Both the position numbers and the translations under genes were made by a program. DNA of 64,000 nt, taken from assembly GCA_030144725.1 (NCBI GenBank), contig JASKMD010000008.1, positions 14,608,836-14,672,835 on the forward strand. Reading direction: 5' to 3'. This document shows, piece by piece, positions 30,328 through 63,554 of the stretch; position 1 is the stretch's first letter; each line of letters starts with the position of its first letter. The DNA comes from Haematococcus lacustris. Lineage: Eukaryota > Chlorophyta > Chlorophyceae > Chlamydomonadales > Haematococcaceae. The notes below the pieces were generated by a model. It was not told the DNA's origin. It saw only the letters and a list, made by a program, of their open reading frames with translations, and ran no database searches.

Positions 30328-30950
30328 TGCTTGCGGGGGGTGCAGCACGGCCATACGATGTATGTATCAACGTGCAGTGTTTGGCCCAGTCCTAGTCTCT
30401 GCATGACATGTGTGAGTTTCAATCTGATACTGCTAAGGTTGCCAAAGGCATTGGTGTCAACGGGGACGAACCTAATTCGAGATGCAGCAGCCTGAAAGGA
30501 ATGCCTGTGTGGAGTTATGCATACCAACATTAGTGGTTTATATGAGCCTGGCTGCAACCTGCACCTGCCGCAGGTCGCTTCAATCTAGCCGGCATAGGTT
30601 TGAGCTTGGCTAACTACAGCAGCGTACGGCATGACATCACACAGCTCTTGCAGTTTACTGTGGCGCAAGCTAGATGGACCACATGCGTTTGCATGTGAGC
30701 CAACTAGCCGCTTCCCCTTGCCGCTTTGGCGCTGCGGGATGGGGCTGTCGAAGGATAAGGAAACATGGCTCGAGGGTCTCAAGGTGACGCAGCTAAAGGA
30801 CGAACTGAAGGCTCGCGGACTTTCTACTGTTGGGCTGAAAGTGGTTTTGGCTGATCGGCTGCGCGAGGCCCTAACAGAGGTGCTGCAGATATGATTGCGA
30901 AGGCTGCGTTGCCGTGTTTCGGCGTGTTAGTTTGGGTGGGATGGCCTTAC
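29955..30950. repeat. 1 kb inverted duplication, arm B (parental)
   Basis: This copy is continuous with both complete genes, so it is the likely parent of arm A at 23213-24206. Differences include HPLGFF versus RPLGFF and SPYFQ versus SAYLQ in the coiled-coil exon. The SAP exon is identical. Confidence 0.9.
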
Positions 30951-33673
30951 GCAGGAGGAGGCTGAAGCTGCAGCGGATGAAGATGCAGCAAATGCGGTCG
31001 AAGCGGTCGAAGCAGCCGCGGAGCCCGCACCATTGGATCCGCTAAAGGCCACGCCACCAGAGCCTGAGCCTGATGTGAAGCCGGAGCCCACTGTCAAGGA
31101 AGTCAGCTGCGAAATTCTGGCCGCTCCAGGCAAGCTTGTCCAGGATGATGTTGCAGGTGCAGGTAATGGCAACGTCGGGACAGTAACGGAGATCATCGCT
31201 CCTGACCAGGAAGAGCAAGAGCCTTTGGTAAGCCGCGAAGGAGAAGCAAGTCCAGGCACCCCATTTTAAGCACAACCACTGGCCACATTACGGGACTGTT
31301 CTTCGATAAATTACATGCTATTGCATTGTACAGGTTACACAGTGCTGTTGGCATTTCACAGGCAACCCGCATGTTTCTTCCATGTATACTATTTCCCAAC
31401 AATAAGCTGTTGTTGTCTGCTTCCTCTTTCTTGCACACTGCAAGCACTGAGTAGTTGTCCAGCCAGCCAAAAAGCTGCGGCAGCAAGACACCGACTGTCA
31501 CATCCCTTATCTTCCTTTGTTGCTCAGGATTATGAACAAGACGACCCAGAGCCCAGCGCTCCAGACCCAGCCCCAGCAACAGAGCTGCAGCCAGCTGAGG
31601 AGAAGGAGAAAAACCAGGCTTCCTTACAGCAGAGCCAGCCTGAGGTTGCGCCAGAGCAGACTACGCCACCAGTGCAGCCAACGCCTACAGAGCATGCAGC
31701 AGATGAGGAGCCAGGCGGGGAAAGCCAGTCAGGCAGGAAGCGGCGTGCACCCATACCTTCATATCAGCCACGTGACAGAGGCCAAGCCCTTGCAGCTGCA
31801 GCCGCGACCTCTGATGGCGACACACCTGCTTCTGCACACAAGACCCCTCCTGACTTGAAGCTCAGTGCCCAGCGCTCCTCAATTGCTGACCCTGCACCTG
31901 TTGTCAGTGTGCTGCCAAAGCCACTGTCTGTCCCACCAGCGCAGGCCCCTGGCAAGACGCCGGCAGTTGAGGGCTCCGTGCCACCTGCCCCTGATGCTGG
32001 AGGCCCACCTGTCAGCTCCCCAGCTCTTCACATAGGCAATCTGGTCAGGCCCTTCCATGAGTCGCAGCTCACCAAGCTGATAAGCCAGTATGGCACAGTG
32101 TTACACCTGTGGATGCCAACTATTAAGGTGTGCGCAGCGTACACCTGTGGAAGTACGGCCTCACATTGACGAGACACCACTGCTGCCAGCCACATGTGCT
32201 GCCTTCAAAGTGTGTCACAGCCATTGTCTGCCATCTCGTTTGTCAGCAAGCCCTCTCATCGCTCCCAATGTTGGGACTCTCTTGTGACAGCACCGTAATG
32301 TGGCAAACACCACAGCATGTTGCTGTTGTTCACCACGCCCTTTTGCACCCAAGGTGACCCAGGCACATGTGTTTGGTGGTATGCATTGGGTGGAATCAGG
32401 TGTGTGTGTTGCGTTGTTGCTCTGGCGCAGACCCACGCCATTGTGTTGCTGGAGTCGTGCGAGCAGGCCAGCGCCTGCCTAGCCGCGCTGCATGGCCTGA
32501 AATGGCCTCAAGGCTCCCCCAAGCTCCTGGCACTCACATCTATCACTCTAGAGGAGGCCCTGGCTGGCTTGAAGCAGGGCAAGGACTCCAGCATCGACTG
32601 GCCACAGGTCAAAGCAATCTATGCCAGAGCTGCCTCCACCGGCGTACACACCCCGCAGCCATCCCCAGCAGGAGCTGCACGCCCTGATAGAGCCAGCAAG
32701 GCACTGGGTGATGATGAATCTGAGGAGCCAGCAGCAGCAGCAGCAGCAGCAGCAAGTGAGTCACCAGCCTCCCCGGCATCAGCAGCACCATTGCGTCCCC
32801 TGTCTGATCCCTCTCCAGCACCAGCAGCAGCCGCGGGCAAGGTAGCCAGCCCTGAAGCCCCCGTTCAGGCAGCCACTGTCAACCCTGAGGATGCAACAGC
32901 TGGGGCAGCAATGGCAGCCAGCCCCACCCAGGCAACAGGCCCGGCCACCTCCCCCACACCAGCACCCACGCTGGGTGTGGTGGCTGCACGCAAAGCAGCA
33001 ATGGCCGCCGCACGTGAAGCTGCGTTGCTCAATGGGGGCGCCTTTAAGCGCGGTGCGCCAGCAGCGCATGAGGAGCCAGGCAGTAAGCGGCATGCAGGGC
33101 CGTTGGCGCAGGCCATGGCCCCGCCTGAGGACGAGGCGGTGGTGTCATTGGACACACTGTTCCGCAAGACAACGGCCAAGCCGCAGCTGTATTGGCTGCC
33201 CCTGACAACAGAGCAGGTGCGATTGCAGGTTCCTGCTCAGCTGGGTTTTTCAGCTGGGTTTGACAGCGGGGCGTTGTAGCTCTGGCAGTTGTAGGTTGGA
33301 GGCATGTGTGGGTTGCAGTGGGGCACAGGGAACACAAGTCAAGGTTATAGGGACAGCTAGACATCCCTGCAAGGTAGGATGAGATATGCTGCACAACGAC
33401 AGATGGGCTGTGTGCATGTGATGGGTGCAGTATGGGCGTAAGAGAGGAATGCCTGTTACCAGGGAGTGAGAGTGTGGTGCTGACTTGCAGGTGGCAATGA
33501 AGCACAGGCGCGAGGCAGACTTGCAGCGTTTGCAGGCCATGCGGGCATCATTGGAGTTCCCTCATCCAGTCAATGGTTGGCCGACTGGCCCTGCAGGACC
33601 AATGCGCCGCATGTCCCCGCCTCAGGCAGGCCATGGCGAGAGAGTGTTGGACCAGTATCGGGGCAGAAGATGA
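30739..33673 (+). CDS. ACINUS: ACINUS-like SAP/RRM splicing factor
   Basis: Exons 30739-30879, 30955-31227, 31528-32127, 32431-33216 and 33491-33673 all join in phase 0 at GT-AG sites and give 660 residues, close to plant ACINUS. Residues 10-46 are a SAP DNA/RNA-binding domain (LKVTQLKDELKARGLSTVGL). A disordered Glu/Pro/Ala stretch follows. The RRM starts near residue 303 (LHIGNLVRPFHESQLTKLIS, GTVLHLWMPTIK/THAIVLLES) and is split by an intron. An Ala-rich region leads to the RSB motif at about 575-603 (LDTLFRKTTAKPQLYWLPLT, then TEQVAMK), which in known ACINUS proteins binds RNPS1 and SAP18 in the nuclear ASAP complex tied to splicing and the exon junction. SAP, RRM and RSB in this order are diagnostic. 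An upstream in-frame start exists at 30631. Its first exon and promoter are duplicated in inverted orientation 7 kb away. Confidence 0.9.
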
Positions 33674-39389: not shown

Positions 39390-39689
39390 TCACGGCGAGC
39401 TGCCGACAGGCTCTGCTGCAGCAGGCGCAGCGAAACACACCGCGACGCTAGGGGGCGCGCCGAGGGTGGTCAGGGCTTTGGCGAGCTCCGCGCTGCAGGC
39501 CTGCTGCAGGGAGATCGCACCAGTAAGGCACTCGGGAGGAAGGCTGGACACGTCCTGAGAGGAGACAAGCCCTGCGGCCCACAGGGAGCGGCGTGACTTG
39601 AGTGCCTTCGTGACGGGCGCTTAATACGACAATCAAGGCTCACCCGCGCACAACAGACCGACCAAAACGGAAAACAACGAGCGGGACAT
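39390..39689 (-). CDS. small secreted Cys-containing protein, tentative model
   Basis: Exon 1 (39689-39644) encodes the signal peptide MSRSLFSVLVGLLCAG. It splices at CG/GTGAGC to exon 2 (39571 onward), restoring frame as GLVSSQDVSSLPPECLTGAI and SLQQACSAELAKALTTLGAP. Read straight on it stops at 39390, giving about 75 residues with three cysteines. A further splice near GTCGCG/GTGTGT could instead join a downstream cysteine-rich segment (MGGPGICCDTAQPPN) ending near 39040. The exported N-terminus is the firm part. Promoter plus first exon are duplicated at 43435-43775, on the other side of the Fanzor element. Confidence 0.45.
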
Positions 39690-39998
39690 GGCGAATGGAT
39701 GGAGTGCGGAGAACGGGATTTCGATGTCCAAGATGGTTGCGAGGTCCGCCTGAGACGTATGGCAGCGCTGAGAGGTGCATAAATTGCATGAGTGACCAGC
39801 AAAGTCCTGGGAAAGCCCAACATTCACATGAATGACCAAGAGGTCGCCTACGCCACAGAAGGCCCATTGAGAAACACACACTAGCCTATGCTGTACGACC
39901 CTAGAGCAGTAGCCTGATAGCTCATATGAAGTACCCTCCTAAAACCGCCCCTGCCCCTGCCCCTGCCCTGCCCCTGCCCCAGCCCCAGCCCCAGCCCC
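39671..39998. repeat. direct repeat 1 flanking the intact Fanzor element
   Basis: Contains AAAACAACGAGCGGGACATGG ... CATAAATTGCATGAGTGACC ... and ends in (CCCCTG)n(CCCCAG)n. It matches 43435-43775 over about 330 bp at over 90 percent. It corresponds to the promoter and first exon of the secreted-protein gene. Confidence 0.9.
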
Positions 39999-40014
39999 GA
40001 AAAACAACGACAAC

Positions 40015-40249
40015 TCCTGAACCCCACAGCCCTCATGCCACACCAAAATAAAGCATGAGTTGGAATCGAACCGGGCTGCGAGTTCATCATTGTAAAGGCT
40101 ACCGACAGTGTGCCTACTGCCCACTTCAGCTCAGCCTTCTGGTGTGTGTGCCTGTTGCTAGAGCCCTAGTAGCTCAAAGCCACACACATCCCCTTTGTGA
40201 GGGGTTTTATGGGTTTTTTTATGTTGGGATTGTCTTGAGCTGTAGCTGG
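40015..40249 (-). ncRNA. candidate Fanzor guide-RNA region, copy F1
   Basis: This is the non-coding DNA between the Fanzor stop codon and the element edge. It matches 63037-63270 with only about ten differences, although the protein gene of that copy is dead. It contains a hairpin CCCCTCACAAAGGGG (40190-40204), a second potential pairing around GAGCTACTAGGGCTCT, and a tRNA B-box-like GGTTCGATTCC (near 40064). In TnpB and Fanzor systems the guide RNA typically arises from the 3' end of the gene and adjacent element terminus, so position and conservation fit. There is no direct evidence of transcription. Confidence 0.45.
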
Positions 40250-43147
40250 CTATTGCTGCAACTGGCGCTGCCACTTGAGCAGCAGGGGCTTGTCGGCTAT
40301 CTCCACCCACTCCTGGCCTGGCTGGCCTGGCTTTGGCATGGCTGGGCGGTTAATCCAGTAGCACAGCTCAGTGGGGCGTGGCCCTGGGCCGACTGCACAG
40401 CGGCGGATGTTCAGCGCGGCTGACACGTCCCGGTCGTAGAACCTGCACATGGGTGTAGGAGATGCATGAAGTCAAGTCCTGTGCCATGTCATGTGGGATA
40501 TGCTCAGGTCATGCACATTTGTAGGGTTGAGTCTGTGCTTACCTGGTGATGTTGTTGATGCTTGTTAAGCACATCAGGCCCCGGACTTGGGATCGCTTTG
40601 CCATGCTTTTCACTGGCCGCAGCCACCTGCATGGGCACATGGGGCAATGCACATTTGTAAGATGTCTCATCTTGACCCTACCTAGTCACCTTGACTCCAC
40701 CACCTCCCAACACTGCCAACAACTTCCTATCCTCAACCCCCTCACCTGAAGGACTCAGGCGGCGTGTCAAGGAGGGTCTCACTGGGGGTGTTGTCGGCTG
40801 AGCTGACCCGGCTGGTTCGGAACTCGTCCACCAGCACCACACGCTCTGGCCTGAACTGCTTCACTGCCTCCTTCTGCATCTGGCTGACAGGGACACCCCT
40901 GCAGCCAATGGTGCCGCTGCCATTGAAGCCAGCTGCCCCATAGGCCAGGGCCAGGATGCGGTCCGGCCACAGCTTCTGTGCCTGCTTCTTGACCTGCAGC
41001 CACATATAGCAAGACACAGTGGCACACATGTGTAAGGTCAGGTATAGCAGCAGCAACAGAGGCAACAACAGCAGCAGCTGGCCAGGTGAGCTGACTGTGG
41101 TTGGCTGCTGCCTAGCTGGTGGGTTAGGGTTATTGGGCCTTACCTTGGCCCAGAACGAAGCGACCACGCGCATCTTGCCACAGTACAGCCTGAACCTGGC
41201 GTTGGCCCAGCGCTTCTTCGAGACCTCGGCCCACATGGCGTCGTACGTCGCCAGGACTGTGTCGGCGAACCGCCGGTACGAGGCCAGCGAGCTGGGCTTG
41301 CTGCTGACCCGCGACAGGGCTGTGAGCTGCGGCTTCACCTTGGCCAGCCACGTCTTGGTCGCCTGGGCTTGCCGTGTAATGCCGCTGTCGCGGTAGTACT
41401 GCCCGGCGGTTAGCGTCCAGTGGCGCACTGACACCACTGAGCCGTCGGCGCTGCGCTCCTCGTGCGCCACCGTGGCCATATTCGTCTTGCCCGGGTCCAC
41501 GCCAAGCCACTCCGCGTGGAGGTGGGCCAGCGGGTTGACTGCGTCCATGCCCTTGGCCATCCGCGGCAGCTCTGCGGGTGGAGCTGCAGGCTTGGGCTGC
41601 AGGAACATCACGCTGATGGCGACTCCATCGGTGTGCACGACCTGATCGAATCTGTGCTTGGGGCTGGCGAGCTTTTGGTGGCGAGGGTCAGGCAGCAATG
41701 CATCCCATTGGCTGGCCACCTGCAGCCACCATAAACACCACCAAGGCACCTCATCTGAAGGCTGGCTGAAGGCTCACAAGGCATGGACAAGGCAACTGAC
41801 AACACACATGGCAAGTGACTGAGCACCAAAGGCTGGCACCTGACTGCAAGGAGCACTCACCTTGCTGTTTGCAGGCCCTTCAATGTAGTGGCCCGGCCTC
41901 GCTGGGTCAGGTAGGGCACCGTTCCTGAACTTGTCCAAGGAGGTGACCCCCTGCTCCGTCAGCACCCCCAGCATGCCAGCGTCACTCATCAAGCCATAGA
42001 GGCCCCGGGTGTCGATGAAGATGTGCCGAGCCTGGCACTTGCTGGTGGGGGTGAGGGCATAGGGAGTGGGGGGGCGGGGGGGCCTCGTCACCAGGTTGGT
42101 GGGCTGAGACTGCTCCCAAGGCACCATATCAAGCTGCCAGGCTGTTATGGCTGCCTCCATCTCTCTGGTGGTGTGCACCGCATGGCGCAGCAGCCGGCCA
42201 CGGTTTGCTGGATCCTCCACCCAAGCGTGACCCACCTTCTCCCCCTCCTCCAGCCCCAGCAGGCCCCGCTGCAAAGCCACCTCAGCCTGCATGGCTGCAG
42301 TCACCACCACCCCACCCTCCCCCACCAGCCAGGTGACCTCCATGCCGCACACCATACGGCGCACATACGTGCACTGCCGCTTGGACCAGGCTGGCAGGTG
42401 CCCACCAACCAGCCCCCTCACCCCAAATCGGCGCTGGTGCTCGTTGGTGCCCAGCAGGACCTTGGCCCCGGCCAGGGACACTGACTTCTTCAGCCTGCCA
42501 GCAAAGAGAAGCGTGAGGATGTTGCCAAAAGCTGTCTGCAGCTGCTGGCCGACGTGGTCCACCATGTTCGTGTCAGACAGGTGGCGGGGGATAGCATCGA
42601 GGCGGGCACACAGGTCGGGGTGCGCGGCCAGCACGGCAGCGACTGCTGCACTCGGCTGAGTGTTCTCGCCTTCTCCGGGCAGGCCGCGGCACAGCTGCAG
42701 GAACAGGTTTCTGCAGCTCAGGTCCGGGATGTCTGCTTCGGAGACTGGGATGTCTGTGTCTGTGTATGACAGTGGCTGGCCTTGCGCGTCAAGCTGGTCG
42801 GCTACGTGCAGGGTAAACAAGCCGCGCACGAGGAAGCCCAACAGCAGGCTGCCAATCACCCCTCGCTCGCTGATGGCCTTCACACGTGGGCGCACAGCCT
42901 TGTCAAGGAAGGCGTCCCAAAGCGCTTGCGGAAGGTGGTCGGTGAGGTGGGCTAACTTGGCCTTTCTTGCGTGGAACGTATCGTCCCTGCTGCGGGCAGC
43001 GCGGGCCTCTCCTGAAGCCTTCCTTTTGCGCTGTGCCTCGGTCAAGTCAGGTTGGGCTGCCTCGTCGCGGTCAACTATGTCGAAGTCCGGGTCCTCCGGC
43101 ACTGCTCTAGGCCCTCCCACACCGGTTCGTCTCTTCTTCCTCGCCAT
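40250..43147 (-). CDS. Fanzor RNA-guided endonuclease, intact
   Basis: Exons 43147-41861, 41719-41144, 40993-40746, 40626-40543 and 40442-40250 join perfectly and give 795 residues. The start is the ATG of MARKKRRTG; KKRR and a following KRK cluster look like nuclear localisation signals. Exon 1 (429 residues) is the recognition and wedge half. The nuclease half carries the RuvC-like triad in TnpB order: D504 in LGVDPGKTNMATV, E678 in VLVDEFRTSRVSS and D737 in FYDRDVSAALN. The zinc-ribbon CxxC pairs usual between the last two are reduced to one Cys (723). Intron 2 (150 bp) is open in frame here, so its retention would add 50 residues. Eukaryotic TnpB relatives of this kind are RNA-guided DNA nucleases; guide and target site are unknown here. 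All catalytic residues seen are intact. Confidence 0.87.
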
Positions 43148-43320
43148 AAACAATTGCAACGCGAGGCAGCTACATATACTAAGGATTCTCGTGCTTGTCA
43201 CACACACGTCCACATGGTTGTTTCAAGTGAGCCCGGTACTCATGTACATTTAATTTAGCCCGTCGCTCCGCATCCTACAACCAGCACCCTACGCTCACGT
43301 GCTGTAACTCAACCGCTACA

Positions 43321-43431
43321 ATGCTAACAATGCTAACAATGCTACTCCAGCTGCTTCTGGCAGGCAGGGTGTACTCCCTCGACCTACGTAGCACGGCCAA
43401 GCGTACCCTGCAGCAAGACTGCCCAATCCCC
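43321..43431 (+). pseudogene. truncated first exon of the secreted GPI-protein gene, carried by F1
   Basis: The plus-strand frame MLTMLTMLLQLLLAGRVYSL...RTLQQDCPIP is about 90 percent identical to exon 1 of the complete gene at 57297-58190. It is cut off right after CPIP, exactly at the Fanzor element edge. It lies head-to-head with the Fanzor gene, at the same spacing as in copy F2. Confidence 0.88.
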
Positions 43432-43434
43432 CAG

Positions 43435-43775
43435 AAAACAACGACAACGAGCGGGACATGGCGACTGGATGGAGTGCGAAGAACGGAGGTTTCGTGGTCC
43501 AAGATGGTTGCGAGGTCCGCCTGAGACGTATGGCAGCGCTGAGAGGTGCATAAAGTGCATGAGTGACCAGCAAAGTCCTGGGAAAGCCCAACATTCACAT
43601 GAATGACCAAGAGGTCGCCTACGCCACAGAAGGCCCATTGCGAGACACACACTAGCCTTTGCTATACAACCCTGGATCAGGAGCTTGCAAGCTCATATGA
43701 AGTACCCTCCTAGAATCGCCCCTGCCCCTGCCCCTGCCCCTGCCCCTGCCCCTGCCCCTGCCCCTGCCCCTGGCC
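43435..43775. repeat. direct repeat 2 flanking the intact Fanzor element
   Basis: Second copy of the 39671-39998 sequence, here retaining GACAAC after AAAACAAC and ending in a (CCCCTG)n run (43715-43775). On the minus strand it begins the same signal peptide (MSRSL), which is then interrupted by the Fanzor element. Confidence 0.9.
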
Positions 43776-43963: not shown

Positions 43964-46900
43964 ATGAAGCTCAGCGCGGCAATTACAGCGACGCCGCAGC
44001 CCCACACCCGGCCGTCCGTTCTGCAGCGACGGGGTGTTTGTGTCTCAGCAGCTACATTTGAGAGCGTCCCCAGCGATGTCAAGCTGCCGCCTGGTGCGCC
44101 CCACGCCGACAGACCTGCAAGCCCACATCATTTGCATGTTTGCATAGTTTGCGATGTGTTCTGCAGGTTTGAACAAGTACAGCTCTCGCATCACACAGCC
44201 AAAGTCGCAAGGAGCGTCGCAGGCCATGCTCTACGCCACCGGGTTGCGGGAGGAGGACATGCACAAGCCGCAGGTTGGCATCTCATCCGTGTGGTACGAG
44301 GGCAACCCCTGCAACATGCATTTGATGCAGCTAGCTGAAGAGGTGAAGCGAGGGGTGGAGGAGGCTGGTCTGGTCGGCTACCGCTTCAACACCATCGGGG
44401 TCTCTGACGGTATGAGCATGGGGACTGATGGCATGAGCTTCAGCCTCCAGTCTCGTGACCTCATCGCTGACAGCATTGAGACGGTCATGGGAGCTCAATG
44501 GTACGACGCCAACATCTCTCTGCCAGGTCAGAGGGGGAGAGCATGCCCATGCCTGACTAGCAATTCAAATACGCAGCATGGATCAGCACACCTGCTTCTG
44601 AACAGTTGCCCAACAAACGCAAAGGACCATGCTGGATTCGACAATGTTTGCCCTACCAAGGCTCTACCTGCCTGTATAGTCTGGCAATAGTATGCAGATC
44701 TCCCCTCTGCCGTTCACAGGCTGTGACAAGAACATGCCAGGCACACTAATGGCCATGGGGCGCTTGAACCGCCCCTCCATGATGGTGTATGGCGGCACCA
44801 TCAAGCCAGGCTACAGCCAGATCAATGGTGCAACCCTGGACATTGTGTCGGCCTTCCAAAGCTATGGTGAGGCCAGCAGCAGCACAGCAGCAGCTGAGCA
44901 CACAGCCACTGGGGAGCACTGCAGCTGCATAACACTACAAGCCAGGCAGTCAGCTGTTTTGCTGACCATGTTGCAGACAGTTACCTTGATAGAGTGTCTA
45001 CTGCAGGGGCTGCACCAGCTGGCTGTGTCATCTTTGCTCGACCCTACGCCATGCCTGTGGTTAACACAGGCGTCACAGTCACAGGCCTGAGGTCTCTTCG
45101 CATGGAGTTGTGACAGCCTGGCTGGACATTGCAGTGCCAGCTGCATAATACTGGGAGGGGGTGTTTACTGGGAGGGGGACAAGGCAAAGCCATGAGCTTG
45201 TGTTGAGCCAGCAGCGAAGCTCAGCTTGGAGAGCTGGCTGTGGGCTATTACACGGAAGGAGGCTCAGAAGGGTTAGCCTGAAGAAGAGTCACTGTATGCC
45301 AGCTGTACTAGTGCTGGCCGCTTGCTTGTGCGAGGGCCCCTACCGATTCCCTCCCACTCCACACCAGGCCATTTCCTGGGTGCACCAGGGTTCTGCTCCG
45401 CCTGTGTGCCCCACCAGAGTGTGCACCAGTGTTTTTTTTTTGCGCTATTGATAGCGTTCGCTATAAAAAGCACTATTTGGGAGGTCGTTTCGCGCTATGA
45501 AATGATAGGCTTACGGGCCCCGCTATCGGGCTCGCGCTATGAAAAACGACCTTTGACCGGCGTTTTAGCCTGAAATTTCGCTGAATTGTGGACCTGAGCC
45601 GTAAAATTTGAACGAAGCCAAGTATGGTCGAGCTATGAAATTGAGGGTATGAGCCTGGGCCGTGTCACTTTGCGCTATAAAATTGGAAATTCGCCAAACG
45701 AAAAAATAATCACTGGTGTGCACCTAGCACAGACTGCACAGCCAGGAGCAGCAGCATGGGAGCAGCAGCAGGTGTCGCCCCACCCGCTTCTGCACACCCG
45801 GCACTTGCATGTGCAGCCTGAGCAAGTAGGTGGACATCGTGCCACGGCTGTAGCTGTGTGCTGCCATGCGTGCATGCAGGTGCTTTCACAGCCGGCCTGA
45901 TTGACGAGAAGCAGCGGTTTGACATTGTACGCAACTCATGCCCAGGGGCAGGTGCATGCGGTGGCATGTACACTGCCAACACCATGGCGTCTGCCATTGA
46001 GGCGCTCGGTATGTCCATGCCCTACGACAGCTCCATCCCAGCAGAGGACCCGCTGAAGCGTGATGAGTGCAGGATGGCAGGCAGGTGCGCCCGCGCCAGC
46101 ACCTAGCCCCTGCTGCTGCACGCTTGCCTTGTTCGCCAGATGCAGGCGGTGCCCAAGCAGCCCATGCAGCTGCCCTGGTGGCAAAGGCACTAGGCTGGGT
46201 GGTTTGATGCGTCGCGCCTGCTGGCTGCGGCTGCATGTGCAGGTACATGCTGGAGCTGCTGAAGCGTGACCTGAAGCCACGTGACATCATGACCTACAAG
46301 GCGTTTGAGAATGCGATGGTGCTGACCATGGCACTGGGGGGCTCCACCAACGCCGTCCTGCACTTCATCGCCATGGCCAGGTGAGGGACCGGGCCACAGG
46401 CCTGTGCCTCCTGGCCCAGGCGGCATGGGAGGGCAGGTGCCCATCAAGCACAACCTTTGCCTCATCAACGGACACGGACGACTCTGTTGCAGCCGGCCGC
46501 TGCTCTGCAACAGCAGTGCTTGTCCAGCTCTGTCAGAGTGGGCCTGCAAAGGCTGGCTGTGGGTGAGGCAGCCGTCCAGCGACCTGACACAGTCAACGTG
46601 GCGTTGAGGATGGAGGTGCAACCTTGCAGCCTAATCGCATTTCTTTGCTTCCCTGTCAGTGATGATCTCTCAGAGCTGTTCCCAGACCAGGCTAGTGTAC
46701 ACAACCCAGCAGCAGCACCTGTGATTCCTTAAGCCTCTCAGCTCACCTAGCCAGCTAGCAGCTCAGCCCTCACCCCATACCCCTGCCTCCCTGGTCACAG
46801 GGCAGTGGGTGTGGATCTGGGTCTGGACGACTTCCAGCGGGTCAGCGACCGCGTGCCCCTGATTGCGGACTTGAAGCCCAGCGGTCGCTATGTGATGGAG

Positions 46901-48380
46901 GACGTGCACAAAGTGGGCGGCACACCCGCGGTGCTCAAGTACCTGAATGCCAAGGGCTACATCAATGCGGAGTGCCTGACTGTCACCTGTGAGCCCGTGG
47001 CGCTGGGACCAGGCCAGCAGCGACAGCAGCAGCGGCAGCAGCAGCTGGCTGGGTGGTGTGCTGAACAACGATGTGATGTAGAGGAGCGGCAGGCTGTGGG
47101 CAGGCTGTCGGGGTGAATGCGCCAGGGTCATCACATCCCACCTGATGCTGGCCTTGCATACAAGTGCCATGTGGTGCCTGCAGGCAAGACCATGGGCGAC
47201 AACCTGGCCCAGGTGCCTGAGCTGAAGGCGGGCCAGGATGTGATCCTGCCCCTGGAGACACCTATCAAGGAGACAGGTCACATCCAGATCTTGTATGGCA
47301 ACTTGGCGCCTGAGGGATCTGTGGCGAAGATCACTGGTGAGGGCCTGTAGTAGGGGGAGGGGCTGGGGCAGGGTAGGGGGCCAGCGGCATGATCTAGGTA
47401 AAGATAGGGATTTTTGGTAGATGCTGATGTATAGAACGCCAAGGGTAAAAAGTGGACAAGTCAAGAAAGTATTAATCATGTACTCCTTAGAGGCATGCGC
47501 GCACCTGAGCCTTCGATTTGCTGCCTTGCTCACCGTTGAGGTGACATGCCTAGGTGCTGGTGGGCTTACCTCCACGCGTGCTGGGCTCCTGTTGTGCCCC
47601 AGGCAAGGAGGGGCTGAAGTTCAAGGGCGCTGCCCGGGTCTTTGACTGCGAGGAGGACATGCTGGCAGCGCTGAGCAAGGACTCAAACTCCTTCAAGGGC
47701 AAGGTCATCATCATCAGGTCAGCGCACTCCACACCTGCCTGCTGCTCAGGCACGCCATTTCCCCTCTTTCCCAGGCTCCTTCCTTCAAGCATAGCTGTGA
47801 GCTGTTCAGATTGACTGCGGTGTGCGGCGGTGTGCAGATATGAAGGGCCAAAGGGTGGACCGGGTATGCCAGAAATGCTCACACCCACATCGGCTATCAT
47901 GGGCGCGGGTTTGGGCAAGGAGTGCGCTCTCATCACTGACGGCCGGTTCTCAGGCGGCTCCCACGGCTTTGTCATCGGCCACGTCTCGCCTGAGGCGCAA
48001 GTGGGCGGGCCGATCGGTCTTGTGCAGGTAGGTGACGCACTGGCTGTACATATGTCTTCGTGTCTTTATGTATGTGAGGTGCGAAGTAGGGCGCATTGAG
48101 TAGCGTAGCGCGGCGGGTCAAACTGCGTCAGGGTGCAGCGGGCACTCCGAGCTGACAATCATCTGACTGCCTTCGGGGCAATGTGTATCATTCTCAGGAT
48201 GGCGATATCGTGAACATCGACGTGGAGGCGCGTGTGATGGACGCCTTGGTGCCGGCGGAGGAGTGGGCTGCGCGCAAAGCCGCCTGGAAGGCGCCTCCCT
48301 TGAAAGCAACCAGCGGGACGCTCTACAAGTACATCAAGAACGTCGTCAGCGCCAGTGAAGGATGTGTCACAGATACCTAA
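43964..48380 (+). CDS. DHAD: dihydroxy-acid dehydratase, plastid-type
   Basis: This Fe-S enzyme dehydrates 2,3-dihydroxy acids to 2-keto acids, the third common step of valine and isoleucine synthesis. Ten exons join in frame: 43964-44093, 44167-44526, 44720-44866, 45880-46084, 46243-46380, 46801-46988, 47184-47336, 47603-47717, 47838-48027 and 48198-48380. They give 602 residues, typical for plant DHAD. The first 40 residues are Ser/Ala/Arg-rich like a chloroplast transit peptide. Cluster cysteines are in GNPCNMHL (92), CDKNMPG (165) and [18 protein letters not shown] (233). Also present are [71 protein letters not shown] and the ending [17 protein letters not shown]. One substitution is notable: TVTCKT where most homologues have TVTGKT. 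Intron 3 is long because of a 291 bp MITE. The gene looks intact. Confidence 0.95.
45426..45716. mobile_element. MITE in DHAD intron 3
   Basis: The 291 bp element starts CCAGTGTTTTTTTTT and ends AAAAAATAATCACTGG. The 6 bp ends are inverted and the flanks are TGTGCA on both sides (45420-45425 and 45717-45722), a 6 bp target duplication. Inside, CGCTAT(G/A)AAA-type motifs recur about seven times. It has no coding capacity. Confidence 0.75.
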
Positions 48381-49760
48381 CCAACCTTGTAAAGCAGGAA
48401 CCATAGTAACCGCAGAGAGCAAACATGTGTTGAAAAAATCCATGTGCGTCATTGCTTAGATCTCCTTAACGACACGGCGGATCAAGGTTGTAATGCATAC
48501 CAGATGCGATGCTGTAGTCAGGGCCAGCTATCTTCCTTGCTTACGTTGCTGTGGAGGTGGCTGTGCTTGAGCAAGAGGTAGCAGTGGCTGAGCTGCAGCA
48601 AGAGGGGGATGGAGCAGGCAAATTTAGGGTTCCGGTTGGGGTTGTCCTGCACCATTGATGGACTGCAGTGTTATGTCGAGCCGTGCTGTCACGCTGATTA
48701 CCACGCTTTGGTGTAGCAGCGATAGCAGAAGACGGCGCAGGTGCAGCGCCATCAGAGATGGCGGAAGAGGCGGCGGGTTGCCTCCAAGCCTCATCACAAG
48801 CTGCGCCAGTGGGCAGATGCACACAGGCGGCAGGCTGAGCAATTTAGGCATGTTCATATCCCCACCATACACTGTATGATACAGCTGCTCACTTTCAAGT
48901 ACCTTGTGCATGCCTGCTGCAGACATGTTGGAGCGCTACAGGTTGCTGTACCACTGGCAACGCACGGTTGGCTGGCGAACACAGTCTGAATCACATGGTG
49001 GCGGACATGTTCAAGTTTTCGTTGAAATGCCATGCACTCCTGCAAAGCCCATCAAGCCGTGATGAGTTTCAGGCAGAAGAGCGCAGACGATGGAAGGCGT
49101 GAGGATGTAAATGGCGGTGCTCGACATGTTGACTGCCACCCGCGCGAGAAGACGCTGGGGAAAACACTCAACGCATCAAGTACGCCATAGTTATCATCAA
49201 TCTAGTGTTTGAAGATGGGACCACCCCCTGCACGAACGAAGCAAGTGGGGGGCAGGGCTCTGGTGCAGTCCAAGCAGGATCTTCTTGCTCAATTGAGTGA
49301 GTCATCTTGGCCAAATGGTCTTTCTTGCTCTTGGTGCCCCACTTCATTATGTCTGGGCATGGCAAGCAGAGTATAGACAGAGCCCTGGAAGGGTCAGCAG
49401 GGCGCTTATCAATGTAACCAGCAGCACGACAAGGCTCCATGTCCAGGCAGAGTGCAGGCAGTGTTGACTTGGTGCAGCATTGCTGTAGGCCTTGCTAATC
49501 ATTGACACGGGGTGTGCCAGACACGGGGTGTGCCAGACATGGCGCACCCGCATCAGGCTTTGCTGGCTTGGCTTGGCTTGGCCTCACTAGGGCCTCCATC
49601 TCAGCCGGATCAGTAGTACCCACTAGCAGCCATTAGCGGGATTATACTAGTGGGCAATAGGGACCCGACTCAAACAGTGTTATTGGGCTGTGTGGAGTAA
49701 ACCCAGTGCACATGGCACATGAGCCCGCCTACCACCTACACTATTGCCTGACCACGAGGG
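48381..49760. other. unassigned; possible decayed minus-strand gene
   Basis: Minus-strand segments look partly coding: 49045-48900 (ECMAFQRKLEHVRHHVIQTV), 48920-48740 (SEQLYHTVYGGDMNMPKLLS, LAQLVMRLGGNPPPLPP) and 49440-49170 (GTKSKKDHLAKMTHSIEQED). No family, start or full splice chain could be assembled. Confidence 0.3.
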
Positions 49761-50234
49761 CTATGTGTAGAGTTGGCATGACCTGCATGCACTAAGTGTA
49801 AGCTGATGACAGCTCAAATGGGGGGGGGGCACACACCACTGTGCCTCAGCAGGCTGTTGCTGGGCCTTGGGAGGCTCGTCTCGCAGCCGCTTGTAGCCCA
49901 GGCCAGGGTACTCCTTGCCCTTGGCTGGCAGAGCTCCCTGGTCTGGCCAGTAGCACAGCTCCAGTGGGCGCCACCTGCTCTCCCCAATGCGCTGCATGTT
50001 CAGCGCTGCATTGCAGTTCCTGTCCAGCCACCTGCCGGGCTGTGTGGCTGGCTTGGCTTTAGGAGCCTTGCCCTTGGCCTTGCCTTTGCTCTTGGTGGGC
50101 TGGGTGGGCTTAGCTGCCTGCTCAGCCTTGGTGCGCTTGGCTGGCGGGGGAGTGCTGGGCCTAGGCTCTGAGGGTGCTGGCTGTGAGGCTGCCTGGCTGC
50201 TGCGTGGGGCCTGTGGGGGCTTGCGGGGGGGCAC
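49761..50234 (-). pseudogene. Fanzor-like C-terminal fragment, clade 2
   Basis: The minus-strand frame has a Pro/Lys-rich linker (KSKGKAKGKAPKAK), then GRWLDRNCNAALNMQRIGES and RWRPLELCYWPDQGAL, ending after KEYPGLGYKRLRDEPPKAQQ. DRNCNAALNM matches the RuvC-III block of Fanzor/TnpB proteins (DR.(N)AALN), with the final Asp replaced by Asn in this reading (RN instead of RD). Only the C-terminal exon is here; the RuvC-I and RuvC-II exons are missing upstream. The linker and flanking motifs differ from copies F1 and F2, so it is a separate lineage. As it stands it is a relic or a solo exon. Confidence 0.6.
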
Positions 50235-50411
50235 TACTGACGCTACATTCGTCGGCTACATTCGTGACGCTACATTCGTCGGCTTGTGTGCTACATTCGT
50301 TACATGTATTTATGTGGCTGGTCCAGTCATTCAATCTCATGTGCTTCCTTTGCTTGGTTGTGTCACCTGTTGGTCGATGCCATACGGTGATGGTAATCCT
50401 GGCTGCTGTGC
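50235..50411. other. short spacer with GCTACATTCGT repeats
   Basis: GACGCTACATTCGTCGGCT is repeated three to four times at 50238-50305. The region separates two divergent coding regions and may contain both promoters. Confidence 0.5.
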
Positions 50412-57296: not shown

Positions 57297-58190
57297 TCAC
57301 AGCATGCGTGTGAGCAGTCCTGCTGCTGCCAGAGCTAGGGTCAGTGGCAGCCAGGAGAAGGATGACAGGATGGAAGCTGAGCCTGGGATAGGGGTTGTCC
57401 TGGGAGGAGGGCTGTTGGCAAGCATTTGCGGTGGAGGGCTGGTAGTGTTGCAGCCCAGAACCGGGCACAGCTGGCTCAATAGGCACGGAGGCTGGACTGC
57501 AAGCAAAAATCACACAAGTGGTTGTGCACTCAGCTTGTGGAAACATGGTAAAACAGGGTATCCACCAGGATAGGAGCCATCCACCCCTCATCACAGTGCT
57601 GCCAGCAGACCATATAGCAAGTGTTTCATTACTTAGCATGCCCAGCACCTACTTGTGTTGTTGCAGCTGGTCAGCGAGAGCAGGGCATCTAAAAGCACAC
57701 CAGCGGCAGTGAGTTGCCCGAGAAACCCTACACCACATGGAGTCAGGATAGAGGCCACAGCAGCTGTGGCGGCGGTAGCGTTGCCGGCGCTGCACAGCAG
57801 CACAACAACGGAAGCTAGTGAATTGTATGCAAGTTGATGTGTGCAAGCTCAACCATCGTGTTCTCACACGCCTGGTTGCGAGAAAATGCCAGCAGATTGT
57901 AGTGCAGGAAGGAACGACCCAAACAGCCTGCATCTGCAGGTATCGCAGAATGTAGCTGAGGTGGGCACTGCACGCAAAGGGCTACGCGAAGATTAGAATC
58001 ACCGGACACGCGGCATTGCGATACTACATGCAGCATCTTGCTCACTGCATAGCGCCGCAGCCCCTGTGAGGTCGAGCGTGGTGTTAAACGGGATTGGGCA
58101 GTCTTGCTGCAGGGTACGCTTGGCCGTGCTACGCAGGTCGAAGGAGTGAACCCTGCCTGCCAGAAGCAGCTGGAGTAGCATGAGTAGCAT
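57297..58190 (-). CDS. secreted, GPI-anchored Cys-rich protein
   Basis: Four exons, 58190-58046, 57981-57870, 57789-57653 and 57496-57297, all join in frame to give 197 residues. The N-terminus is a clear signal peptide (MLLMLLQLLLAGRVHS). The mature part has scattered cysteines (QQDCPIP, ALCTLCVQCPPQL, ADAGC, LTPCG, LTSCNNT, QPPC, QLC, LGC), two NT(T/S) sites and a Ser/Pro stretch. The C-terminus is hydrophobic after small residues (GSASILSSFSWLPLTLALAA...) as expected for GPI attachment. No known domain was recognised; a cell-wall or flagellar-surface protein is plausible. The gene is head-to-head with Fanzor copy F2 (168 bp between start codons), and its first exon is also found, truncated, at the edge of copy F1. 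Confidence 0.7.
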
Positions 58191-60836
58191 CTGAGTTACT
58201 TTATCTGTGAGCGTAGGGTGCTGCTGGTAGGATGCGGCGATGCGGGCTGAAGTAAATGTACATGAGTACCGGGCTCACTTGAAACATCCATGTGGACATG
58301 TGTGTGACAAGCACGAGAATCCTTAGTATATGTAGCTGCCTCGCGTTGCAATTGTTTATGGCGAGGAAGAAGAGACGAACCGGTGTGGGTGGGCCTAGAG
58401 CAGTGCCGGAAGACCCGGACTTCGACATAGTTGACCGCGACGAGGCAGGCCAACCTGACTTGACCGAGGCACAGCGCAAAAGGAAGGCTTCAGGAGAGGC
58501 TCGCGCAGCCCGCAGCAGGGACAATACGTTCCACGCAAGAAAGGCCAAGTTAGCCCACCTCACCGGCCACCTCCCGCAAGCGCTTTGGGATGCCTGTCTG
58601 GAACGTGCTGTGCGGCCACGAGTGAAGGCCATTAGCGAGCGGGGGGTGATTGGCAGCCTGCTGTTGGGCTTCCTCGTGCGCGACTTGTTTACCCTGCACG
58701 TAGCCGACCAGCTTGACGCGCAAGGCCAGCCACTGTCATACACAGACACAGACATCCCAGTCTCCGCAGCAGACATCCCGAACCTCAACTGCAGGAATCT
58801 GTTTCTGCAGCTGTGCCGCGGCCTGCCCGGAGACGGCGAGAACACTCAGCCGAGTGCAGCAGTCGCTGCCGTGCTGGCCGCACACCCCGACCTGTGTGCC
58901 CGCCTCGATGCAATCCCCCGCCACCTGTCTGACGCGAACATGGTGGACCACGTCGGCCAGCAGCTGCAGACAGCTTTTGGCAACATCCTCACGCTGCTCT
59001 TCGCTGGCAGGCTGAAGAAGTCAGTGTCCCTGGCCGGGGCCAAGGTCCTGCTGGGCACCAACGAGCACCAGCGCCGATTTGGGGTGAGGGGGCTGCTTGG
59101 TGGGCATCTGCCAGCCTGGTCCAAGCGGCAGTGCACCTACGTGCGCCGTATGGTGTGCGGCATGGAGGTCACCTGGCTGGTGGGGGAGGGTGGGGTGGTG
59201 GTGACTGCAGCCATGCAGGCTGAGGTGGCTTTGCAGCGGGGCCTGCTGGGGCTGGAGGAGGGGGAGAAGGTGAATCACGCTTGGGTGGAGGATCCAGCAA
59301 ACCGTGGCCGGCTGCTGCGCCATGCGGTGCACACCACCAGAGAGATGGAGGCAGCCATGGCAGCCTGGCAGCTTGATATGGTGCCTTGGGAGCAGTCTCA
59401 GCCCACCAACCTGGTGACGAGGCCCCCCCGCCCCCCCACTCCCTATGCCCTCACCCCCACCAGCAAGTGCCGTGCTCGGCACATCTTCATCGACACCAAC
59501 GTCCTCTACGGCTTGATGAGTGACGCCGGCATGCTGGGGGTGCTGACGGAGCAGGGGGTGACCTCCTTGGACAAGTTCAGGAACGGTGCCCTACCTGACC
59601 CAGCGAGGCCGGGCCACTACATTGAAGGGCCTGCAAACAGCAAGGTGAGTGCTCCTTGCAGTCAGGTTCCAGCCTTTGGTGCTCAGTCACTTGCCATGTG
59701 TGTTGTCAGTTGCCTTGTGCCTGCCTTGTGAGCCTTCAGCCAGCCTTCAGATGAGGTGCCTTGGTGGTGTTTATGGTGGCTGCAGGTGGCCAGCCGGTGG
59801 GATGCATTGCTGCCTAACCCTCGCCGCCAAAAGCTCGCCAGCCCCAAGCACAGATTCGATCAGGTCGTGCACACCGATTGAGTCGCCATCAGCGTGATGT
59901 TCCTGCGGCCCAAGCCTGCAGCTCCACCCGCAGAGCTGCCGCGGATGGCCAAGGGCATGGGCGCAGTCAACCCGCTGGCCCACCTCCACGCGGAGTGGCT
60001 TGGCGTGGACCCGGGCAAGACGAATATGGCCACGGTGGCGCACGAGGAGCGCAGCGCCGACGGCTCAGTGGTGTCAGTGCGCCACTGGACGCTAACCGCC
60101 GGGCAGTACTACCGGGACAGCGGCATTACGCGGCAGGCCCAGGCGACCAAGACGTGGCTGGCCAAGGTGAAGCCGCAGCTCACAGCCCTGTCGCGGGTCA
60201 GCAGCAAGCCCAGCTCGCTGGCCTCGTACCGGCGGTTCGCCGACACCGTCCTGGAGACGTACGACGCCATGTGGGCCGAGGTCTCGAAGAAGCGCTGGGC
60301 CAACGCCAAGTTCCGGCTGTATTGTGGCAAGATGCGCGTGGTGGCTTCGTTCTGGGCCAAGGTAAGGCCCAAGAACCCTAACCCACGAGCTAGGCAGCAG
60401 CCAACCACAGTCAGCTCACCTGGCCAGCTGCTGCTGTTGTTGCCTCTGTTGCTGCTGCTATACCTGACCTGACACATGCGTGCCAATGTGTCTTGCTACA
60501 TGTGGATGCAGGTCAAGAAGCAGGCACAGAAGCTGTGGCCGGACCGCATCCTGGCCCTGGCCTATGGGGCAGCTGGCTTCAATGGCAGCGGCACCATTGG
60601 CTGCAGGGGTGTCCCTGTCAGCCAGATGCGGAAGGAGGCAGTGAAGCAGTTCAGGCCAGAGCGTGTGGTGCTGGTGGACGAGTTCCGAACCAGCCGGGTC
60701 AGCTCAGCCGACAACACCCCCAGTGAGACCCTCCTTGACACGCCGCCTGAGTCCTTCAGGTGAGGGGGTTGAGGATAGGGGGTTGTTGGCAGTGTTGGGA
60801 GGTGGTGGAGTCAAGGTGACTTGGTAGGGTCAAGAT

Positions 60837-62609
60837 TAGGGCGGTTCCCCCCCCTGCTAATATTAACAATAGCAATAATAGCAAGCAAAAAAATATTAGC
60901 AAATAATAGCAAGCGATTCTTGTAGCGCCTTCATTTGCTTCCTAGCGCAATGGCTGAGCCTGGCTGCGCTGCGCCCCCTGAGCACCTGGTTGATAATGCG
61001 CCGTTGGAGGCCGACTCCTGGACCCAAAGACTAAGGAACAAGACCCACACTATCGCTGCCCTGCTTTCAAAGTAGAAGGGCAGCAAGGCCGTGCGCACAA
61101 ACTATCGCGCAATGGTCGACCTGAATCTGAAGAAGGTCGTGATCGCGTGTGTGCTGTGCTGGGCGACAATCAGCTGCTCCAACATGACGACTGGGCAGTG
61201 CCAGCATAATGACCATTGCCTGAAGCGGGTCCCAACTTCAGGCAAGCACAGCAGTGCCAATTCAGCATGCTAGGCTAGAGCCTACAACCCTGCAGCTCAC
61301 CATGCATGCTCTGCCCTGCCTGCCATTGCTGCCTGCCTACTTACAGCAGGAGCTAGCACCCTCTCCACAAAGAGGTTGAAGACTACCTTGAACACCTTGT
61401 ACGAGGAGACGCGAATGGAGAAGGATGCTGAACTAAAGGATCACCCTTGCTCCAGCCCCAGCCCCAGCCCCAGCCCCAGCCCCAGCCCCAGCCCCAGCCC
61501 CAGCCCCAGCCCCAGCCCCAGCCTCAGCCCCCGCCCCAGCCCCAGCCCTGGTCCCAGCCCCTGCCCCTGCCCCTACCCTAGCCCCAGCCCCAGCCCCAGC
61601 CCTAGCACCAGCCCCTCCCCTCCTCCTTGCTGCGGCCAGTCCACCACCTCTCAGTCCATCCATATTCTATCCACCATCTACCATCGATGGCTGGCGTCAT
61701 AGGCGGGCAGCACCATCTACCATCTACCCATCTACCATCATCTACCATCTACCATCTACCCATCTACCATCATCTACCATCTACCATCTACCCATCTACC
61801 ATCATCTACCATCTACCATAATCTACCATCTACACATCTATCATCTACCATCTATCATCTACCATCATCTACCCACCTTAAACTGTGTATGCTACCTGTG
61901 CGATGTGCGTGCGTAGGCGGGTGAGAGTCTAGCGATGAAGGTAGGGCTGGGTGGTGTGGGTGGGGGTGGGCTGGGCTGGCCTGGGCGGGGCTGGGCTGGG
62001 CGGGGCGGGGCACTTGATCCCTTGCTCGTGCTTCACTCAAGTGACAGGTGGTGATCCCCGGTTGCTGCTTGGGGTCATCATGGACAGCCCTTCCACAAAC
62101 CGTGCTGCCCTACGCCATTTGGAGCGAAAGTACCCCTTTTGGATCTCACGCGCTTGCCTCGTCTCCCGCCTGACGTCTTCACTTCACTCCATCTTCTCCC
62201 CACTCCTACTCCTCGTCACTTGTGCACCTCCGTCGTGCTTTGGTTGCTGCCGACTGTGGTGCAACGTTAGACATGGGCAGCTGGGAGTGGCTAAGTGCCC
62301 GGTGTACCGTTGTAGTGACCGGCCACCCCTTTTGCGTTGTTTTCATGAAGTTTCTATGGATTACTTGTAAACTTCAAGCACCTCACGTGCCCCCTTGCTT
62401 GCGGTAACAAGTCTCTTCTGTCACACGGAGGGCAATGTCTTGACAGACACGAAAGATAGCGGAAACTCTGCATCGGACAGGGATAGAACACCGTACCTCT
62501 CGATCTCCGGACCCCCGGACGCCCCTTGAGCTAATATTAGCAATGCTGCCGCTAATATGAGCTAATATTAGCAATTCGGCTCGGAGCTAATACGCTTGGC
62601 TATGCCCTA
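60837..62609 (+). mobile_element. hAT transposon, degraded, inside Fanzor intron 3
   Basis: Comparison with F1 gives exact edges: the insert starts TAGGGCGG and ends GCCCTA, with GTCAAGAT duplicated on both sides (60829-60836 and 62610-62617). An 8 bp target duplication and TAGGG-type ends are hAT hallmarks. Subterminal GCTAATATTAGC motifs occur at both ends (60858-60905, 62530-62585). Internal coding remnants are a Cys/His cluster like a BED finger (ACVLCWATISCSNM...CQHNDHC, about 61130-61230) and LLLGVIMDSPSTNRAALRHLERKYPFW, split here as LLGVIMDSPSTNRAALRHL and ERKYPFW (about 62065-62145), which resembles the DUF659 part of hAT transposases. Repeats fill the rest. Confidence 0.85.
61449..61875. 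repeat. (CAGCCC)n and CATCTACC repeats within the hAT element
   Basis: 61449-61612 is a hexanucleotide CAGCCC array with CTGCCC variants. 61710-61875 is built of CATCTACCATCTACC units. Confidence 0.95.
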
Positions 62610-63036
62610 GTCAAGATGAGCCATCTTACAAATGTGCATTTCCCCATGTGTCCATGCAGGTGGCTGCGGCCAGTGAAAAGCATGGCAAAGCGTTCCCAAG
62701 TCCGGGGCCTGATGTGCTTAACAAGCATCAACAACATCACCAGGTAAGCATTGACCCAACCCTACACATGTGCATGACATGAGCATATCCCACATGACAT
62801 GACACATGAATTGACGTCATGTATCTTCCACACACATGTGCATGTTCTACGACCGGGACGTGTCAGCCGCGCTGAACATCCGCCGCTGTGCAGTCGGCCC
62901 AGGGCCACGCCCCACTGAGCTGTGCTACTGGCCTAACCGCCCAGCCATGCCAAAGCCAGGCCAGCCAGGCCAGGAGTGGGTGGAGATACCCGACAAGCCC
63001 CTGTTGCTCAAGTGGCAGCGCAAGCTGCAGCAATAG

Positions 63037-63270
63037 CCAGCTACAGCTCAAGACAATCCTAACATAAAAAAAACCATAAAACCCCTCACAAAGGGGATGT
63101 GTGTGGCTTTGAGCTACTAGGGCTCTGGCAACAGGCACACACACCAGAAGGCTGAGCTGAAGTGGGCATTAGGCACACTGTCAGTAGCCTTTACAATGAT
63201 GAGCTCGCAGCCCGGTTCAATTCCAACTCATGCTTTATTTTGGTGTGGCATGAGGGCTGTGGGGTTCAGG
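63037..63270 (+). ncRNA. candidate Fanzor guide-RNA region, copy F2
   Basis: Matches 40249-40015 with about ten differences, including the hairpin CCCCTCACAAAGGGG at 63082-63096 and the degenerate B-box-like GGTTCAATTCC. It stays conserved despite loss of the protein gene. Confidence 0.4.
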
Positions 63271-63520
63271 AGTTGCCAGCTCGACAGAGGGGTGCGAGGC
63301 CGATACTACATGAAGGCAGGAACGCTGGCGTTGTTGGTGCACCTGGCTCACCTAGCACCCAACCTGCACCTTGCATTGCCTAGACTAGCACCATAGCGTG
63401 TTCAACACCATGCAGCTTCCAGCCGCACCATGCCAGTCCACAGACCTATTTAGACAAGGGTGATGAAGACATGCTGTTCAAGACACGCGTCCAACCCCAT
63501 CCCCCACAATCGACACATCG
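63271..63520. repeat. repeat shared with ACINUS 3' flank
   Basis: Reverse complement of 33700-33940 (for example GGCCGATACTACATGAAGGC and GACACGCGTCCAACCCCATC). It directly abuts the outer end of Fanzor copy F2. Confidence 0.75.
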
Positions 63521-63554
63521 TCACATCCACACATCGACACATCGTAGAGGGTAG

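What the first reader, a model, noticed from the sequence alone, without database searches (positions are those of the whole stretch)
40015..43434. Intact Fanzor element that has captured a host signal-peptide exon
Copies F1 and F2 share the nuclease gene, its leader and the first exon of an opposite-strand secreted-protein gene. Only at F2 is that host gene complete (four exons, GPI signal). At F1 the exon is cut after CPIP, exactly at the element edge. The simplest reading is that a Fanzor next to this host promoter was mobilised together with host DNA, i.e. transduction by a eukaryotic RNA-guided nuclease element. The shared head-to-head promoter could also drive the Fanzor gene.
Basis: partly seen in the sequence, partly recalled or inferred. 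Interest (0 to 1): 0.88.

Follow-up and report, generated by a model that had tools for sequence, protein, structure and literature searches.

The report
Mobile element carrying a captured exon
In a green alga whose proteins match Haematococcus lacustris, one copy of an abundant mobile element with an RNA-guided-nuclease-like (Fanzor-like) gene carries the upstream region and part of the first coding stretch of a neighbouring gene, likely picked up when copying ran past the element's own start, as related elements in Chlamydomonas have been reported to do.

Summary
F1 (40011-43434) is a discrete insertion with a 10-bp target-site duplication (AAAACAACGA, 40001-40010 and 43435-43444). Its 5' end is cut inside exon 1 of a small gene that looks secreted. 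F1 belongs to a large dispersed family (2065 first-look candidates for its 3' end) with a near-constant 3' end, ragged 5' ends and target duplications: 10 of 29 testable copies, none in 200 flank-swap shuffles. A genome-wide probe found the exon at four loci. Three (F2, L002, L003) hold the whole gene within duplicated DNA; F1 alone is a dispersed copy. F1's exon matches L002/L003 without a substitution over 90 bp and differs from F2 at 4 sites. F1 also carries, internally, the start of L002's own target duplication (TTGAGTTACA), so copying ran past the source element's 5' edge into host DNA. Bao and Jurka (2013) described such one-ended Helitron2-type transposition with 5' capture for Fanzor1 elements of Chlamydomonas. 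Nothing shows that the nuclease itself mobilised the DNA, and its C4 zinc finger is missing. F2 as it stands is not the direct source. Verdict: a real, source-resolved capture of a known kind; promoter use untested.

The parts
40011..43434 (-). F1, whole inserted element (nuclease gene sense = minus strand); 3' end at 40011, 5' end at 43434
   Evidence: near-constant family 3' end ...GGTTCAGGAGTTG at 40011; target-site duplication at both edges
40001..40010 (.). target-site duplication, 3'-side copy (AAAACAACGA)
43435..43444 (.). target-site duplication, 5'-side copy (AAAACAACGA), followed by CAAC (= TTG target read on the minus strand)
43321..43430 (+). captured 5' part of exon 1 of the predicted secreted-protein gene (signal-peptide-like coding, cut at CPIP, no splice donor)
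   Evidence: no substitution over 90 bp against L002 and L003, 4 against F2; reading frame
43303..43312 (-). TTGAGTTACA: internal relic of the source element's own 5' target-site duplication
   Evidence: same 10-mer sits at both edges of the L002 element and nowhere else in the 364 kb of held sequence, window and overlapping loci together
43263..43302 (.). copy of the gene's leader fused to the element's 5' region
   Evidence: L002, L003 and F2 leaders printed and compared by eye
41861..43147 (-). F1 nuclease gene exon 1
41144..41719 (-). F1 nuclease gene exon 2 (RuvC-I: GVDPGKTN)
40746..40993 (-). F1 nuclease gene exon 3 (RuvC-II: VDEFRTS)
40543..40626 (-). F1 nuclease gene exon 4 (region where the C4 zinc finger is expected; absent)
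40250..40442 (-). F1 nuclease gene exon 5 (RuvC-III: RDVSAALNI)
40011..40150 (-). structured 3' end with subterminal hairpin CTCATGC/GCATGAG; would hold the guide-RNA scaffold if the element works like other Fanzors
   Evidence: fold -53.2 kcal/mol for 140 nt, no shuffle control; stem exact in 26 of 35 printed loci, of 37 given
39664..39998 (.). repeat R, left unit (target of F1)
   Evidence: 92.7% to the right unit
43445..43770 (.). repeat R, right unit
58090..63275 (+). F2: related element, nuclease gene with a stop codon in exon 2 and a 1.77-kb insert in an intron (60840-62609)
57297..58190 (-). complete secreted-looking gene at F2 (four-exon reading, hydrophobic C-terminus)
   Evidence: gene models P0001, P0002
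63533..63625 (.). stretch of the gene's leader lying on the far (3') side of F2
   Evidence: 85% to the L002 leader

Best explanation
F1 is a discrete insertion of an element with a Fanzor-like nuclease gene whose copying likely began at its fixed 3' end, ran past the 5' edge of a parent copy sitting just upstream of a predicted secreted-protein gene, and stopped inside that gene's first exon, so that leader and signal-peptide-like coding DNA moved with it. Shown: F1's edges, its target-site duplication after TTG, the family's near-constant 3' end and ragged 5' ends, the parent arrangement at L002, and the parent's own target duplication (TTGAGTTACA) now internal to F1. Inferred: that the machinery is a Helitron2-type rolling-circle transposase supplied in trans; the genome encodes RepHel proteins, but their ends were not read. 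Untested: whether the carried leader drives either gene.
For: Target duplications of 8-11 bp in 10 of 29 testable copies, F1 included, against a mean of 0 and a maximum of 0 in 200 flank swaps (the test required a preceding TG, so only the T or C before it, 8 TTG and 2 CTG, is a result); an 11th (L002, GTTG|AGTTACAT at both edges) by eye. 43 of the 46 loci L010-L055 (37 of 40 distinct places) end at F1 coordinate 40000-40013; the other three are F1 itself, L003 (40023) and L027 (40017). Exon probe: 5 matches at 4 loci, all 4 first-look candidates scored. Whole-gene probe: 3 full copies head a list of 40 scored of 1211 candidates. The gene is complete and next to the element at L002 and L003. 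Exon: no substitution over 90 bp against L002 and L003, 4 against F2. F1's 5' 545 bp match L003 at 98.2% (L002 98.0% over the 306 bp that align), its 3' 423 bp match L003 at 98.6%. F1 groups with F2, L002, L003, L011 and L012 in the 3' region (100/98, bootstrap not fully settled). TTGAGTTACA relic. Introns are kept in copies aligned across them (L042, L045, L050), which argues against an RNA intermediate in sense orientation. RepHel present: 18 PF14214 matches, 7 above 150 bits. Precedent: one-ended, TSD-bearing, 5'-capturing Fanzor1/Helitron2 elements in Chlamydomonas (PMC3627910, section 8 read).
Against: L057 (C476:14493256) sits at the same position of another R unit with only about 18 bp of leader and no exon; its body is closer to another subfamily (96.1% to L050, 94.1% to F1), so it reads as a second insertion at the same site, but a conversion history of F1 cannot be excluded. 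F1 lacks part of the leader that L002 has, so a deletion must be added. Four non-matching bases (CCAG) lie between exon and duplication at F1. F2, L002 and L003 differ in their 3' flanks, and F2's own insertion has no recognisable duplication. 19 of 29 testable copies show no duplication by the test. No 8-15 bp asymmetric terminal repeat like Helitron2's stood out. In the 5' region the grouping of F1 with F2, L002, L003 and L012 is only 90/93.
Confidence: 0.78

Rival explanations
1. Repair, not transposition: an element already in R (as at L057) was cut near its 5' edge, the broken end copied from an L002/L003-type locus through leader and exon, and was then joined to R.
For: L057 shows an element at exactly F1's R site with a shorter 5' end; homologous donors exist on the same contig; four filler bases at F1's junction.
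Against: Both ends of F1 match L003 (98.2% over the 5' 545 bp; 98.6% over the 3' 423 bp), whereas the L057 fragment is 94.1% to F1; the exon ends next to the target duplication, the geometry of a simple insertion. L057's 3' end is missing, so it could not be tested further.
Confidence: 0.12
2. Ordinary segmental duplication placed the exon at F1; no transposition was involved.
For: F2 and L002 share duplicated DNA spanning some 16 kb of the window, L003 part of it, and F1's surroundings resemble L011's.
Against: F1-F2 similarity stops at 40011 and 43430; F1 has its own target duplication.
Confidence: 0.04
3. The secreted-looking gene is regular cargo of a larger element, and F1 is merely a 5'-truncated copy of that element.
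For: All three complete genes sit between two nuclease-like elements or their remnants, and no relative was found outside H. lacustris.
Against: The gene was found 3 times, against 2065 first-look candidates for the element's 3' end; dispersed family members stop before it; L002's target duplication lies between gene and element.
Confidence: 0.06

Closest known systems
CRe-1, CRe-2, CRe-3 Fanzor1 elements of Chlamydomonas reinhardtii (non-autonomous Helitron2; Bao and Jurka 2013, PMC3627910)
   Same: Fanzor-type gene with introns (five exons in CRe-1), intact 3' ends and frequent 5' truncation, variable target duplications, T-rich target preference, 'captured' extra sequence upstream of the normal 5' end (section 8 read; other passages)
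   Different: Target here ends in TTG/CTG rather than TTTT; the captured DNA is traced to named loci and includes coding exon sequence; zinc finger missing; shared ends with an autonomous Helitron not shown
Helraiser/Helibat Helitron read-through transduction (PMC4778049)
   Same: Flanking host DNA is moved when the transposition terminator is bypassed (passages read)
   Different: There capture is downstream of the 3' end; here it is upstream of the 5' end, with target duplications
Fanzor/TnpB RNA-guided nucleases (PMC10711439, passages read)
   Same: RuvC residues in order: DPGK, VDEFRTS, RDVSAALN; structured 3' end next to the gene
   Different: No C4 zinc finger; no match to solved structures by sequence; guide RNA and cleavage untested

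Membership tests
Fanzor1/TnpB nuclease | D-X(125,275)-[TS]-[TS]-X-X ... RD motif (PMC3627910) | tested here: met
   F1 carries D504, TS681-682 and RD736-737; 56 of 123 scanned protein rows carry a strict form of the motif, the 67 misses including the 2 secreted-looking proteins and many partial or joined gene models
Fanzor1/TnpB nuclease | C4 zinc finger (OrfB_Zn_ribbon, PF07282) between TS and RD | tested here: not met
   0 to 2 cysteines in that stretch in 56 of 56 motif-bearing rows; the one C4-like pattern elsewhere (P0121, residues 506 on) lies outside the motif; PF07282 matched weakly in 7 of 27 members (best E 0.0051), and below cut-off in 2 of 4 single proteins (18 and 14.5 of 26.3 bits); none in F1 itself
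Fanzor1/TnpB nuclease | similarity to solved Fanzor/TnpB structures | tested here: inconclusive
   no sequence match up to E 1 (profile) or E 10 (P0075); fold prediction switched off
Fanzor1/TnpB nuclease | guide RNA from the element's 3' end and guided cleavage | not testable with these tools
   only a structured, conserved 3' end was seen
Helitron2 (non-autonomous, one-ended type) | constant 3' end, variable 5' end, target duplications of variable length | tested here: met
Helitron2 (non-autonomous, one-ended type) | 3' subterminal hairpin | tested here: met
   CTCATGC/GCATGAG stem, exact in 26 of 35 loci printed (37 given) and changed by one base in the other 9
Helitron2 (non-autonomous, one-ended type) | asymmetric terminal inverted repeats, 8-15 bp | tested here: inconclusive
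   only short or low-complexity complementary stretches found (9 bp GTGTGTGTG, 8 bp ACCGGGCT)
Helitron2 (non-autonomous, one-ended type) | ends shared with an autonomous RepHel element of the same genome | not tested

The most novel reading that the evidence does not exclude
The Fanzor-like nuclease itself drives the one-ended copying: guided cutting at TTG sites, with the element's 3'-terminal TTG acting as its target-adjacent motif, would open a site that is repaired by copying from the 3' end outward until it stops in host DNA, so that these elements spread and shuffle promoters and signal-peptide exons without a conventional transposase.
Probability: 0.08. Interest if true: 0.88.

Novelty: new member of a known kind. 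Interest (0 to 1): 0.5.

Why it matters
Bao and Jurka noted captured sequence upstream of Fanzor1 elements in Chlamydomonas; the section read gives no source for it. Here source type, edges, target duplication and the parent's own duplication can all be read, so the direction and extent of capture are fixed. The family is abundant in this genome, so it offers many independent events for asking whether a Fanzor-like nuclease, a Helitron-type transposase or both set the 5' end point, and how often such elements move promoters and signal-peptide exons.

Tried and rejected
Ordinary segmental duplication as the cause of F1: rejected on its edges and duplication. Secreted-looking gene as general cargo: rejected on copy number. 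F1 and L057 as one insertion duplicated: rejected on body similarity, though the shared site stays unexplained. F1's 330-bp flanking repeats as one very long target duplication (lengths up to 443 bp are reported in PMC3627910): disfavoured, because the two R units match each other at 92.7%, less than each matches the R beside L011 (95.6% and 94.7%). RNA-mediated copying: disfavoured, introns retained. Pfam, NCBIfam and PDB searches gave no firm nuclease assignment. 5' fillers of five other copies (40-197 bp): apart from themselves, L051's matched L054 (90 bp at 95.6%) and L048's shared its last 18 bp with L019; the other three matched nothing held. Genome searches for the L045 and L048 fillers and for R did not complete.

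Dropped from counts: of 37 sequences assayed, 3 (L003, L027, L028) had no recognisable 3' end and 5 (L018, L019, L020, L025, L033) had under 60 bases of upstream sequence, leaving 29; loci with the same flanks as one assayed (such as L022, L024, L041) were not given. Within the 29 the script placed the 5' edge of F2 wrongly (at its intron insert) and put L002's edge beyond its own duplication, so both count as misses there. One search printed only ends between 39999 and 40014 with matches over 200 bp, which left out 3 of 46 loci (L010, L015, L027); six places appear twice in it.

Full report
Where it is. The window is C476:14608836-14672835 of a 308-Mb genome. Protein records on a contig of the same length (21,499,393) are named Haematococcus lacustris, so the species is inferred from that match. 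F1 is not alone: its last 250 bp drew 2065 first-look candidates in the genome, of which 40 were scored (41 matches).

The element. F1's nuclease gene has five exons and one open 795-aa frame. RuvC-type residues are in order (GVDPGKTN, VDEFRTS, RDVSAALN), but the C4 zinc finger that Bao and Jurka list in the Fanzor motif is missing in all 56 protein rows that carry the rest of the motif (of 123 rows scanned; one C4-like pattern in P0121 lies outside it). Database support is weak: PF07282 in 7 of 27 members, best E 0.0051; no solved structure. I therefore write Fanzor-like. dN/dS between F1 and four other copies is about 0.28-0.40 (ratios of the dN and dS values), which points to constraint on the protein over family history; of the five frames compared, only F1's is free of internal stops, although indels in three of the others complicate that count.

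How the family inserts. Of 46 loci L010-L055, 43 (37 of 40 distinct places) end at the same 3' point, F1 coordinate 40000-40013; the other three are F1 itself, L003 and L027. 5' ends are scattered. Testing whether the first bases after the 3' end recur, preceded by TG, within 300 bp upstream of the 5' edge gave 10 of 29 copies with 8 or more matching bases; swapping flanks among copies 200 times gave none. The TG was required by the test; the base before it was T in 8 and C in 2. F1's own duplication is TTG|TCGTTGTTTT on the minus strand. L002 is an 11th case by eye, GTTG|AGTTACAT at both edges. This is the one-ended pattern of CRe-1, 2, 3 in Chlamydomonas, where sequence captured upstream of the normal 5' end is also reported (PMC3627910, section 8).

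The captured piece. A probe of 43262-43434 matched only four loci: F1, F2, L002 and L003. L002 and L003 hold the complete gene next to the element, and a whole-gene probe gives three full copies at the head of its list. F2 and L002 align in pieces across window 48109-64000 and on to 65095 beyond its end; L003 shares about 7 kb of this in pieces and none of the DNA beyond the element's 3' end. The other 37 matches of the whole-gene probe cover only its last 125 to 159 bp, around window 57067-56932 (1211 first-look candidates); this reads as the 5' end of a second Fanzor-like family, so in these three loci the gene appears to be flanked by two such elements or their remnants.

Direction. F1's exon matches L002 and L003 without a substitution over 90 bp and differs from F2 at 4 sites. 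F1's first 545 bp are 98.2% identical to L003; L002 gives 98.0% over the 306 bp that align. Between exon and element F1 has TTGAGTTACA (43303-43312). In L002 that same stretch is the start of the element's target duplication, present at both edges; the 10-mer occurs nowhere else in the held sequence. F1 thus contains the 5' boundary of its parent plus host DNA beyond it. F2 has a related but shortened junction and lies on the other side of part of the gene's leader (63533-63625), so the element has a complicated history upstream of this gene, with different junctions at F2, L002 and L003.

What speaks against it. L057, 159 kb away, has a nuclease-element fragment at the same position of an R unit with about 18 bp of leader and no exon. 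Its body is closer to another subfamily and its 3' end is missing, so its own target duplication could not be tested. The coincidence of site is unexplained. Four unmatched bases separate exon and duplication at F1. 19 of 29 copies show no duplication by the test.

Consequences. At F1 the exon has no splice donor and reads on into R for a 67-aa chimeric frame; no evidence says it is used. About 175 bp lie between the two start codons (43147 and 43321), so a shared head-to-head promoter is possible but untested. Secretion and GPI anchoring of the gene's product are read by eye.

Literature. The full-text searches for Fanzor with Chlamydomonas (6 papers, 5 listed), transposon and capture (23, 20 listed), Haematococcus (2, 1 listed), and host gene and exon (2) listed no title describing a Fanzor element carrying a traced host exon; of the listed papers I read parts of PMC3627910 and PMC10711439 only, and the library holds open-licence papers only. 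PMC4778049, from the Helitron search (6 papers), was read in passages.

Noticed in passing
L057, L063 (C476:14492871-14495099): A 5' fragment of the same element family sits at exactly F1's position in another R unit, with a body closer to a different subfamily and about 18 bp of the captured gene's leader.
   Followed up: partly
56456-56863, 49872-50033 and 25610-26092: Remnants of other Fanzor-like gene families near F1 and F2; 57067-56932 is a high-copy repeat that looks like the 5' end of one of them.
   Followed up: partly
56 of 123 protein rows: All 56 Fanzor-like proteins with the strict motif lack the C4 zinc finger; this may be general in this genome.
   Followed up: partly
60840-62609: 1.77-kb insert in an F2 intron bounded by TCAAGAT repeats and rich in GCTAATATTAGC, probably another mobile element (by eye).
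   Followed up: no
39664-39998 and 43445-43770: R repeat, hit three times by this family (F1, L011, L057), at two different TTG sites.
   Followed up: partly
23210-24208 and 29953-30951: Inverted pair of about 1 kb, 99% alike.
   Followed up: no
about 5527-10262: Long frames that look like a Copia-type retrotransposon (label from recall, not from a call).
   Followed up: no
about 43964-45100, +: Frame resembling dihydroxy-acid dehydratase starting some 0.6 kb downstream of F1's captured exon, same direction (label from recall).
   Followed up: no
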